Positions 24,416 through 62,831 of a DNA stretch of 64,000 nucleotides are shown one piece after another. The translations under genes were made by a program, and so were the position numbers. The DNA is taken from the NCBI GenBank assembly GCA_963971535.1, contig OZ020585.1, positions 158,869,714 through 158,933,713 of the forward strand, read 5' to 3'. The notes beneath the pieces are model-generated. The model ran no database searches, was not told the DNA's origin, and saw only the letters and a list, made by a program, of their open reading frames with translations. This stretch comes from Notolepis coatsorum (Eukaryota; Chordata; Actinopteri; Aulopiformes; Paralepididae). Within the stretch, counting starts at the first letter, position 1, and each line of letters starts with the position of its first letter.

Positions 24416-25067
24416 CAGGGCCGCGGGAAGTCAGTCAGAGTTGGGGGTGCGGAGATAAGTGATATAATAATGTCATAGGCGGCGGGGGCAAATGTTTACC
24501 TTTTTTGTCAATACACACACACACCCACTACACTCTTAAAAAAAATGTATTTTTACGGGACTTTCAATGTATTATTTTACAGATTACTTTTGTTTTTCTA
24601 CTTTAAGTGTAAATCCCATAAAAATACAGGAAATTCCATAAAAATACAGTAAATAACCTTTAATACAAATATTAACCATTAAATAAAGGTTGTAATCTGT
24701 AGATTGATTTAATAAGAAATTATCTTTTTTTTACAGGATTATTCCATTGCTTAATTGTCTTGAATGTTAAATTACATGTAAAACACCTAGAATATACATC
24801 ATTTTACTGTATGTGAAAATAAGGCAACTTTCTGTTTTTTTGCTGTTAAACTTTAAATGTAATGTTAAATAATGTTAAAAAAGAGAATAATATAATTAAA
24901 AAACAGTAAAAACCTTCAGTTATTCTACAGGTAATTCTTTTTAAATACATGTATTTGCTTAATTGTGTTGAATGTTAAATTACATTGAATTGTATGTAAA
25001 AACACATAAGATACTCATCATTTTACTGAATGTGAAAATAAGGCAACTTTCAGTATTTAAAAAAAAT

Positions 25068-25857
25068 ACGATCAAACTCCTTCAATAAAGTGACAGAACT
25101 TAAAGTTCAGCAGTGAAACACTGTTATTTCACAGGTTTTTCCTACATTTATGATGAAACACCTTCAATTAAGTGACATAACTTAAGTTCAGCAGTGAAAC
25201 ACTGTTATTTTACAGGTTTCCCCATAATTATTACAATCAAACTCCTTCAATTAAGTGACAGAACTTCGTTCAGCAGTGAAACGCTGTTATTTGGCAGGTT
25301 TTTCCTACATTTATGATGAAACACCTTCAATTAAGTGACATAACTAAAAGTTCAGCAGTGAAATACTGTCATTTGACAGTATTTTCCTAAATTATTACGA
25401 TCAAACTCCTTCAATTAAGTGACAGAACTTAAAGTTCAGCAGTGAAACACTGTTATTTTACAGGTTTCCCCATAATTATTACAATCAAACTCATTAAATT
25501 AAGTGACAGAACTTCGTTCAGCAGTGAAACACTGTTATTCTACAGGTTTTTCCAAAATGATTACAATCAAACTCCTTCAATTAAGTGACAGAACTTAAAG
25601 TTCAGCAGTGAAACACTGTTATTTCACAGGTTTTTCCTACATTTACGATGAAACACCTTCAATTAAGTGACATAACTTAAGTTCAGCAGTGAAACACTGT
25701 TACTTTACAGGTTTCCCCATAATTATTACAATCAAACTCCTTCAATTAAGTGACATAACTTCGTTCAGCAGTGAAACACTGTTATTCTACAGGTTTTTCC
25801 AAAATGATTACAATCAAACTCCTTCAATTAAGTGACAGAACACAAAGTTCAGCAGTG
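25068..25857 (+). repeat. Left subterminal tandem array, ~80-84 bp units
   Basis: About ten units of aaactccttcaattaagtga, cagaacttaaagttcagcag, tgaaacactgttatttcaca, ggtttttcc. Units alternate between cataattattacaatc and tacatttatgatg forms. The same unit, inverted, builds 60195-62060. Confidence 0.93.
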
Positions 25858-26898
25858 AATTTTTTTTTACAGATATTTGCTATATATTCTCTGTATTTTT
25901 ACAGCCCAACTGCTGTATACAAATTCAAATTACCTATTATTTGAAATCCCTTTAAAAAGTATCTGGACAAGACATTTTTCTTTTTTAAATGTCAATGCAC
26001 ATTAGGGAAAATGAATGATGTTCAAATAAAAGCCCAAGTTCTAATCTATCGGTTTTCATTTCATGTTTCAATCTGCTCCAGAGGCTGATATAAAAGGTTT
26101 TATTAACTGACAATTCTGAAAATCTTTCCAAAAAACCCTAATTGCATAGGTTTTAATAGGAGTTTTTAGCAGGCGTTTTATGTCTAAATGGGTTAAGTAT
26201 TCATTTTGCATGGTCTCAGCTGCACTCCAGTTCAACAACCCACAAGCAAGCACTCTTCTCAGTATATTTGGAGTACATACAGTTGATATATACAGTTGAT
26301 ATACCTTGTAAAAGTCAGTACAGTTAATGTGTCAAAAGTAGAAATAAGCATTTAAAAGCTCTATTCTCCAATGTGGATGATAATCTGCCAATGGTGAAAA
26401 GGAAACGACTATATCTAGCATACTATTGTATAGTGCTGAGAGATGAGTCGGCGGTGGTGTCTCGAAGGAGAGCGGTATTTATTAGCACAACATTTTATAT
26501 GGAAATCACAACATTTATATGGAATGTCACTGTAAACCAGTGTTCATTTTGGCAGCTATTTTCATTTTAGTTTTAGTCTTAGTAATGTGTCAAGTGCTCC
26601 TTTTTCGTTTATCATATTTAGTCATTTTCATTTATTTTTTTCGTTTAGTCAGTTTTAGTCAACTAAAATGTCTGAGCATTTTAGTAAACGGATGACATTT
26701 TTGTCTATTTTTAGTCAATGGAAAAAAACTTGGCAGAAGTCAGAAATAGTCAACATGGAACATATTCTGATTTAAATTGCGTATTTATTTTTTAACCTAT
26801 AGGGGAATCTGAGTCGGCGGCACAAGTAATAAACAGGAAGGGTGCAGCACTCACTGTCGATCTGTGAATGGAGAAATAACTTAATAAGACAGTCACAT
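25858..26898. other. Unassigned AT-rich interior sequence
   Basis: Starts with ctgtatttttacagc, typical of fish EnSpm subterminal sequence. Around 26540-26760 is a stretch rich in ttttagttttagtc and its inverse, probably an old DNA-element fragment. No gene. Confidence 0.4.
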
Positions 26899-26901
26899 TA
26901 T

Positions 26902-60194: not shown

Positions 60195-62060
60195 AAGTGT
60201 TTCTCTGCTGAACTTTGAGTTCTGTCACTTAATTGAAGGAGTTTGATTGTAATAATTATGGGAAAACCTGTAAAATAACAGTGTTTCACTGCTGAACTTT
60301 AAGTTCTGTCACTTTATTGAAGGAGTTTGATTGTAATAATTGAGGAAAAACCTGTGAAATAACAGTGTTTCACTGCTGAACTTTAAGTTCTGTCACTTAA
60401 TTGAAGGAGTTTGATTGTAATAATTATGGGAAAACCTGTAAAATAACAGTGTTTCATTGCTGAACTTTAAGTTCTGTCACTTTATTGAAGGAGTTTGATT
60501 GTAATAATTGAGGAAAAACCTGTGAAATAACAGTGTTTCACTGCTGAACTTTAAGTTCTGTCACTTTATTGAAGGAGTTTGATCGTAATCATTTAGGAAA
60601 AATCTGTGAAATAACAGTCTTTCACTGCTGAACTTTGAGTTCTGTCACTTTATTGAAGGAGTTTGATTGTAATAATTATGGGAAAACCTGTAAAATAACA
60701 GTGTTTCACTGCTGAACTTTAAGTTCTGTCACTTAATTGAAGGAGTTTGATTGTAATAATTGAGGACAAACCTGTGAAATAACAGTGTTTCACTGCTGAA
60801 CTTTAAGTTCTGTCACTTTATTGAAGGAGTTTGATCGTAATAATTTAGGAAAAACCTGTGAAATAACAGTCTTTCACTGCTGAACTTTGAGTTCTGTCAC
60901 TTTATTGAAGGAGTTTGATTGTAATAATTATGGGAAAACCTGTAAAATAACAGTGTTTCACTGCTGAACTTTAAGTTCTGTCACTTAATTGAAGGAGTTT
61001 GATTGTAATAATTGAGGAAAAACCTGTGAAATAACAGTGTTTCACTGCTGAACTTTAAGTTCTGTCACTTTATTGAAGGAGTTTGATCGTAATAATTTAG
61101 GAAAAACCTGTGAAATAACAGTCTTTCACTGCTGAACTTTGAGTTCTGTCACTTAATTGAAGGAGTTTGATTGTAATAATTATGGGAAAACCTGTAAAAT
61201 AACAGTGTTTCACTGCTGAATTTTAAGTTCTGTCACTTAATTGAAGGAGTTTGATTGTAATAATTGAGGAAAAACCTGTGAAATAACAGTGTTTCACTGC
61301 TGAACTTTAAGTTCTGTCACTTTATTGAAGGAGTTTGATCGTAATAATCGAGGAAAAACCTGTGAAATAACAGTGTTTCACTGCTGAACTTTGAGTTCTG
61401 TCACTTAATTGAAGGAGTTTGATTGTAATAATTATGGGAAAACATGTAAAATAACAGTGTTTCACTGCTGAACTTTGAGTTCTGTCACTTAATTGAAGGA
61501 GTTTGATTGTAATAATTATGGGAAAACATGTAGAATAACAGTGTTTCACTGCTGAACTTTGAGTTCTGTCACTTAATTGAAGGAGTTTGATTGTAATAAT
61601 TCTGGGAAAACATGTAAAATAACAGTGTTTCACTGCTGAACTTTGAGTTCTGTCACTTAATTGAAGGAGTTTGATTGTAATAATTCTGGGAAAACATGTA
61701 AAATAACAGTGTTTCACTGCTGAACTTTAAGTTCTGTCACTTTATTGAAGGAGTTTGATCATAATAATTTAGGAAAAACCTGTGAAATAACAGTGTTTCA
61801 CTGCTGAACTTTAAGTTCTGTCACTTTATTGAAGGAGTTTGATCGTAATAATTTAGGAAAGACCTGTGAAATAACAGTGTTTCACTGCTGAACTTTGAGT
61901 TATGTCACTTAATTGAAGGAGTTTCATCGTAAATGTAGGGAAAACTTGTGAAATAACAGTGTTTCACTGCTGAACTTTAAGTTCTGTCACTTTATTGAAG
62001 GTGTTTGATCATAATAATGTAGGAAAAAACCTGTAAAATAACAGTGTTTCACTGCTGAAC
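60195..62060 (-). repeat. Right subterminal tandem array, 84-bp units
   Basis: About 22 units of ttctgtcacttaattgaagg, agtttgattgtaataat, gggaaaacctgtaaaataac, agtgtttcactgctgaactt. It is the inverse of the array at 25068-25857. Neighbouring units show alternating variants, a sign of paired-unit duplication. Confidence 0.95.
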
Positions 62061-62245
62061 CTAACCTGTCAATTAACAGTGATTCTCTGTTCTCGGGTTC
62101 TCAAATAATAAACAGAATTATCTGTAAATTTATTGCTTTTCCACTTTATTTTAATTAGGGTATTTCAATGTAAATTCTACAGAATATCTCTGGCACCAAG
62201 CTGCCGGACTTCTACCGTTTTTTTACCGATTTTTTTCTTACAGTG
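62061..62245 (-). mobile_element. Right terminus of the CACTA-like element
   Basis: Read inward it begins CACTGTAAGAAAAAAATCGG, then cggtagaagtccggcagctt and ggtgccagag, a layout I know from fish EnSpm families. Confidence 0.7.
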
Positions 62246-62831
62246 TAGGCTATGCGAGGCTGGCGAGCCCCACTCTTTTAATATATAGTGCAAATTAAGT
62301 GTTCAAATGAAGGCATCCAATAATAGATTAACCATTGTCTTACCTTAATGCAGCAACATGCGACGTTTCGTCTTGGCATCAATGATCTTTTCTGCCCGGT
62401 GCAGCCCGGTACAGCTTCTAAATTACTTTGTTTATATGCCTTGGAAAAATACCGTATATCCATTTTGCTTTGGGGTCATTAAAGTTATCGATCGCCATCT
62501 GGTAGATCCATCCATATGTCCATTGGCTGATGATATATTCCTTTACTGCAAATTCAGCGTCCCAAAAACTATTCCAGGCCATCGGCTACACGCATAACTT
62601 TAACACTGCTTTAATAACACTGCATTATTGAGACAGCGCCCCTATGAGGATCTGGCCGGTAATGCACTTTTCTGAATTTCAAGAGTAGGGTAAATCTGCA
62701 GTGCCGCTCGGTGACATTGAGTAGGATACGGTATTACAATGGAATAAAAGCCTAAACAACCTTGCAGTTACAACTCCCTGCCAGGTGGGGGTGCTGCAGC
62801 ACCCTAAGCACCCCCTGTTCCCGCGTCCCTG
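62246..62831. mobile_element. Right portion of the outer hAT-like element
   Basis: About 586 bp without recognisable coding content, ending gcaccccctgttcccgcgtc and cctg, the inverse of the left terminus at 24416. Confidence 0.6.

What the first reader, a model, noticed from the sequence alone, without database searches (positions are those of the whole stretch)
24416..62831. A 38-kb nest: hAT footprint around a CACTA-like element carrying two genes
Seen: an 8-bp duplication ctacctac flanks matching inward ends (CAGGGCCGCGGGAA / CAGGGACGCGGGAA), and the surrounding 54-bp tandem repeat continues in register with only those 8 bp added. Inside are CACT... ends, inverted subterminal arrays, a transposase-like ORF and a second gene. 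Known: hAT elements leave 8-bp duplications, and CACTA elements have CACT ends and subterminal repeats. Inferred: everything between entered this site, either as one composite mobile unit or as successive insertions.
Basis: partly seen in the sequence, partly recalled or inferred. Interest (0 to 1): 0.9.

Follow-up and report, generated by a model that had tools for sequence, protein, structure and literature searches.

The report
Giant young transposon within a transposon
The 38-kb stretch is one copy of a young, unusually large "jumping gene" family in what looks like a fish genome, sitting inside a smaller transposon, and it shows that a cut-and-paste type of transposon can spread as units of 34 to 52 thousand bases.

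Summary
CTACCTAC duplications and hAT-type ends enclose 24416-62831, and the 54-bp array rejoins best at that offset. Three layers are resolved by empty sites in the same 3.4-Gb genome. (1) A 0.7-kb hAT entered the array; two other copies have their own 8-bp duplications and no insert. (2) A 37.7-kb element (24531-62245) entered that hAT, duplicating TA. (3) A 2.4-kb hAT (35365-37741) entered that element; 7 of 7 fetched copies covering the site lack it.

The parts
24352..24415 (.). left part of the 54-bp tandem array that is the host site
   Evidence: (joined array, positions 152 onward)
62832..62962 (.). right part of the 54-bp tandem array
24408..24415 (.). 8-bp target-site duplication CTACCTAC, left copy
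62832..62839 (.). 8-bp target-site duplication CTACCTAC, right copy
24416..24530 (+). left piece of the 0.7-kb non-autonomous hAT (hAT-A), up to and including the target TA
   Evidence: two other copies continue across this point uninterrupted
62248..62831 (+). right piece of hAT-A
24529..24530 (.). TA target-site duplication of the giant element, left
62246..62247 (.). TA target-site duplication of the giant element, right
24531..62245 (-). giant EnSpm-like (CMCT clade) element, 37,715 bp, termini CACTC...CAGTG; its two recognised genes read on the minus strand
25067..25859 (.). left subterminal array, about 82-bp units, 9.6 copies
   Evidence: inverted relative to the right array, 88% identity over 714 columns
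60190..62060 (.). right subterminal array, 84-bp units, 22.3 copies
37872..40514 (-). transposase ORF, 881 aa with start Met: four N-terminal C2H2-like motifs, RAG1/Transib-like DDE core, C-terminal BAH-like fold (borderline)
34601..34783 (-). second gene, first coding exon found (SAM/HhH-like in the homolog modelled)
32168..33127 (-). second gene, main exon
30956..31132 (-). second gene, exon
30025..30168 (-). second gene, last exon
35365..37741 (.). hAT-like insertion hAT-B, 2,377 bp, absent from the other copies that cover the site
   Evidence: ends CAGGGGCG/CAGTGGCG; 7 of 7 fetched copies covering the site are empty (the other 3 of 10 fetched were not read that far)
35357..35364 (.). 8-bp duplication GTATGTAC of hAT-B, left
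37742..37749 (.). 8-bp duplication GTATGTAC of hAT-B, right
41832..44919 (.). nest of inverted repeats inside the giant, structurally different between copies
48452..51169 (.). internal tandem arrays carried within the giant

Best explanation
The locus is a three-layer nest. First, a 0.7-kb non-autonomous hAT (hAT-A) inserted into a 54-bp tandem array, duplicating CTACCTAC (shown by sequence and by other copies). Second, a 37.7-kb giant EnSpm-like transposon inserted into hAT-A at a TA, duplicating TA (shown by empty hAT-A copies). Third, a 2.4-kb hAT (hAT-B) inserted into this copy of the giant, duplicating GTATGTAC (shown by empty giant copies). The giant belongs to a young family that moves as one unit of tens of kilobases (shown by 2-bp duplications at both ends of 13 copies and by a second copy read end to end). 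Inferred mechanism: its RAG1/Transib-like DDE transposase cuts at the CACT/AGTG ends, brought together through long inverted arrays of 82-84-bp subterminal repeats, probably helped by the second protein, acting like the TNPA/TNP1 repeat-binding partner of plant En/Spm and Tam1, and joins the ends to targets preferring TA with a 2-bp stagger. Also inferred: a good part of the extra length is passenger repeat DNA that was in the element before its latest spread.
Against: Copies were chosen by near-identity of the left end to the window, so the youngest are over-represented. 43 of the 59 left ends and 46 of the 62 right ends have no exact partner within 150 kb: their other end may be diverged, lost or further away, so the share of intact copies is unknown. 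Two more left ends were not in that count; the lists show no partner for them. Only two copies (window, C8:78.7M) were read end to end; for the other 11 of the 13 the junctions were read but not the whole interior. No transposition was observed. TA is also the preferred target, so TA/TA alone does not prove a duplication; the empty hAT-A sites and the two CA/CA copies do, and one of those two lies in a CA microsatellite. The role of the second protein is inferred; a homolog's model matched no solved fold at Foldseek E 0.001. The C1:159.4M copy has no match above 300 bp to the window between the equivalents of about 49.5 and 57.8 kb, and its right end was not found in the stretch read.
Confidence: 0.93

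Rival explanations
1. One composite unit: the hAT carried the whole 38 kb into the array by its own ends.
For: Both outer ends are hAT-like with a perfect 8-bp duplication.
Against: Two hAT-A copies lack the insert and read through with one TA. The giant sits at 12 other places with its own 2-bp duplications.
Confidence: 0.03
2. The inner 37.7 kb is a one-off pile of unrelated insertions between two chance CACT ends, not a mobile unit.
For: It contains many nested repeats and arrays and hAT-B, which other copies lack.
Against: The C8:78.7M copy has the same order of unique blocks at 99.46-100% identity between its own TA duplications, and 13 of 13 copies read at both junctions have 2-bp duplications.
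Confidence: 0.02
3. Copies spread by segmental duplication or assembly duplication rather than transposition.
For: Very high identity between copies.
Against: The 13 copies have different flanks, each with its own 2-bp duplication; the 11 left flanks compared differ.
Confidence: 0.03
4. The second gene is host cargo picked up by the element rather than a standard component.
For: Its named homologs are annotated as uncharacterized or hypothetical fish proteins (one as interferon-induced 44) without mention of a transposon; 79 of 83 collected proteins matching it carry no transposase piece.
Against: In 4 of the 83, from Triplophysa dalaica, Nibea albiflora, Pangasianodon hypophthalmus and Danio aesculapii, the protein model joins a transposase piece to this gene in the same order, so the two lie side by side in other fishes too.
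Confidence: 0.15

Closest known systems
EnSpm/CACTA elements, e.g. soybean Tgmt* (PMC2613891, passages read)
   Same: CACT-type ends, asymmetric subterminal repeat arrays, and a transposase with a second gene function; Tgmt* is itself large at 20.5 kb.
   Different: Tgmt* has a 3-bp duplication and CACTA ends; this family has a 2-bp duplication, CACTC/CACTG ends and spans 34.0-51.5 kb in the 13 copies checked.
Enlarged EnSpm families of Chondrus crispus, 16-20 kb with 4-5 ORFs (PMC6431247, passages read)
   Same: EnSpm elements larger than usual.
   Different: Here the size is about double, and the ORFs scanned outside the two genes had no Pfam match above a curated cut-off (9 of the 42 ORFs plus one more).
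ESTA, EnSpm-like transposons with TA duplications in rust fungi (PMC12730594, passages read)
   Same: CMCT-type transposase and TA duplications.
   Different: A fungal lineage; the families described there carry a TET/JBP gene; no phylogenetic test was run here.
Transib and RAG1
   Different: Sequence identity of those rows is about 9-13%; Transib makes 5-bp duplications (recalled), this family 2-bp.
Teratorn, 41-182 kb giant elements of teleosts (PMC6431247, passages read)
   Same: Giant elements of fish that use a DDE transposase.
   Different: Teratorn is a piggyBac-herpesvirus fusion with about 90 further genes; no such gene was seen among the ORFs scanned here.

Membership tests
CMCT clade (EnSpm, Mirage, Chapaev, Transib and relatives) | DDE transposase with C(2)C and H(3-4)H motifs between second D and E | tested here: met
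   D359, D450, C471-x2-C474, H677/H678...H682, E702 invariant in 22 aligned proteins; criterion from PMC12730594 (passages); D359 as the first D is my reading of the model's strands
CMCT clade (EnSpm, Mirage, Chapaev, Transib and relatives) | CA...TG termini and 2-5 bp duplication | tested here: met
   CACTC...CAGTG; 2-bp duplication in 13 of 13 copies read at both junctions
CMCT clade (EnSpm, Mirage, Chapaev, Transib and relatives) | RAG1/Transib-like transposase fold | tested here: met
   [not shown]
EnSpm/CACTA in the strict sense | 3-bp duplication | tested here: not met
   0 of 13 copies have a 3-bp duplication
EnSpm/CACTA in the strict sense | tnp2 (PF02992) transposase | tested here: inconclusive
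   2 of 22 aligned proteins match, best E 3e-5; the window protein itself does not at E 0.01; DUF4218 E 0.022, below its cut-off
EnSpm/CACTA in the strict sense | subterminal repeat arrays in inverted orientation | tested here: met
ESTA / Mirage | phylogenetic placement of the transposase | not tested
   no reference sequences of these lineages were fetched
hAT (hAT-A) | 8-bp duplication and CAGGG-type short inverted ends | tested here: met
   window plus two other copies, each with its own 8-bp duplication
hAT (hAT-A) | hAT transposase | not tested
   about 0.7 kb, so non-autonomous; the autonomous copy that drives it was not sought
hAT (hAT-B) | 8-bp duplication and CAGGG/CAGTG-type ends | tested here: met
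   GTATGTAC twice; empty in 7 of 7 fetched copies covering the site
hAT (hAT-B) | hAT transposase | tested here: inconclusive
   one 213-aa open stretch inside it (36546-37184) had no Pfam match at E 0.1; nothing else in it was scanned

The most novel reading that the evidence does not exclude
This is the largest non-viral cut-and-paste transposon family known in a vertebrate that is, or was until very recently, active: a RAG1-like transposase moves 34-52 kb units. Its C-terminal BAH-like fold, a type of domain that reads histone marks, may steer insertion into permissive repeat-rich chromatin, and this tolerance would let the element keep gathering passenger transposons and arrays while still amplifying.
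Probability: 0.3. Interest if true: 0.78.

Novelty: new variant of a known kind. Interest (0 to 1): 0.62.

Why it matters
DNA transposons are commonly thought to move less well as they grow (recalled). Here 13 insertions of 34-51.5 kb with clean junctions, two of them read end to end and nearly identical, show that an EnSpm-like enzyme, a distant relative of the recombinase behind antibody genes, handles such lengths in an animal. Since passenger repeats travel along, this is a direct route for copying tens of kilobases at a time in a 3.4-Gb genome. The open transposase ORFs (4 of 7 copies) and clean ends make activity testable, and the 2-bp duplication and possible BAH-like tail set this lineage apart from textbook CACTA elements.

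Full report
Observation. CTACCTAC stands at 24408-24415 and 62832-62839, and the enclosed sequence begins CAGGGCCGCGGGAA and ends in the reverse complement of CAGGGACGCGGGAA. Because CTACCTAC is part of the 54-bp repeat and occurs five times in the window, the motif itself is weak evidence. Joining the flanks with one copy of the 8 bp gives the best 54-bp array of 61 offsets tried, though neighbouring offsets score only slightly lower (306 against 299 and 297).

The hAT layer. The two outer pieces (24416-24530 and 62248-62831) are one element. In the same genome, a search with the right piece gave 51 match rows from 40 scored places out of 5,469 first-look candidates. The two best places beyond the window were read with flanks (the others were not). 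Both are complete 721-bp copies with their own 8-bp duplications, GTAACAGT and GGTTAGTT, and both read through the point where the giant sits in the window with a single TA. So the giant entered a hAT copy at TA and duplicated it. It could in principle have entered before this hAT copy reached the array; nothing found supports that.

The giant unit. I fetched 20 kb from each of ten left ends on the plus strand, chosen because they were nearly identical to the window's left end. Seven of the ten reach the transposase region in the window's order, with insertions and deletions; in the other three the stretch ended earlier, because the left region is longer or carries other DNA. The interval from the left terminus to the interior, which holds the left array, is 0.8 kb in the window, about 14 kb in C1:185.8M, and over 19 kb in C6:195.0M, where the interior was not reached. 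Three copies were followed further. C8:78.7M is complete at 33,986 bp between TA and TA; it lacks the equivalents of about 42.2-43.6 and 45.84-46.63 kb. C46:37.3M keeps the order over the 40 kb read. C1:159.4M has no match above 300 bp to the window between the equivalents of about 49.5 and 57.8 kb and no exact right end in the stretch read.

Genome-wide ends. An exact 52-base left end occurs 52 times, 45 of these preceded by TA. An exact 46-base right end occurs 62 times. Reversed-pattern controls gave 0. Pairing 59 distinct left ends (together) with the 62 right ends gave 16 correctly oriented pairs within 150 kb, all between 21.7 and 51.9 kb, and two wrongly oriented neighbours (listed sizes can include some flank, about 180 bases for the window). 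The remaining 43 left and 46 right ends have no exact partner in that range, so the share of intact copies is unknown. For 13 of the 16 I read both junctions: 13 of 13 have a matching 2-bp duplication, 11 TA and 2 CA, and none a 3-bp one. Their sizes run from 34.0 to 51.5 kb. The three pairs not read at both junctions are C21 (21.7 kb), C1:109.1M (28.0 kb) and C13:68.9M (51.9 kb). The CA cases show that the dinucleotide comes from the target and not from the element; one of them lies in a CA microsatellite, the other does not.

Age and integrity. Pairwise divergence is 0-0.76% in the left 529 bp (11 copies), 0.08-0.61% in the transposase ORF (7 copies), 0.03-0.60% across the second gene's main part (8 copies), 0-0.93% at 44921-45837 (7 copies), and at most 0.15% in two stretches further right (3 copies). 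The transposase ORF is open throughout in 4 of the 7. Of the ten fetched copies, six gave at least 90% of the ORF in one alignment; one (C13:116.9M) is interrupted there by a repeat that also occurs inside the element at 47247-48383; three were not read that far. Selection by left-end identity favours young copies, so this describes the youngest wave and not the whole family.

Third layer. The window copy carries 35365-37741, 2,377 bp, with hAT-type ends and GTATGTAC on both sides. All 7 of the 7 fetched copies that cover the point have a single GTATGTAC there. Without hAT-B and one duplication the element is 35,330 bp.

Second gene. Four coding exons match fish proteins, and two further short open stretches lie between them. 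Of 83 collected proteins that match this gene, 4 also carry a transposase piece, upstream in each. So the pair lies side by side in at least four other fishes; 79 of 83 say nothing either way. In plant En/Spm a transposase and a repeat-binding protein come from one locus and both are needed (PMC2613891, passages read). By analogy the second protein is the likely array-binding partner; this is inference.

Classification and novelty. By motifs, ends and fold the family belongs to the CMCT clade. It does not show the 3-bp duplication given for EnSpm, so I call it EnSpm-like rather than EnSpm/CACTA proper. Large relatives I could find in print are 16-20 kb (Chondrus; PMC6431247, passages read) and 20.5 kb (soybean Tgmt*). 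Candystripe1 of sorghum at about 23 kb is recalled, not read. The listings of paper searches showed no vertebrate EnSpm-like family of 34-52 kb, but they cover open-access papers only.

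Noticed in passing
window 892-11169: A 10-kb satellite of 34-bp units, about 314 copies.
   Followed up: no
window 23699-24149, 31227-31715, 30581-30893, 34831-35032, 12853-13169: Copies of one dispersed repeat, inside and outside the giant; SINE-like by my recollection.
   Followed up: no
L009-L010 (C6:195.0M): The copy's left region exceeds 19 kb, with array blocks recurring about every 6.3 kb, suggesting the end region itself was amplified.
   Followed up: partly
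L013-L014 (C13:116.9M): Its transposase gene is interrupted by a repeat 92% identical to 47247-48383, which lies inside the giant in the window, so this passenger sequence also occurs on its own.
   Followed up: partly
[not shown]
   Followed up: partly
P0118, P0134, P0156, P0158: Fish gene models join transposase pieces and the second gene; they may be real fused transcripts or transposons annotated as genes.
   Followed up: partly
L027, L028, L031, L032 (C1:159.4M): Structural variant of the giant with other content between the equivalents of about 49.5 and 57.8 kb.
   Followed up: partly
L056-L057 (C44:3.57M): This copy sits in a CA microsatellite and is flanked by CA instead of TA.
   Followed up: yes
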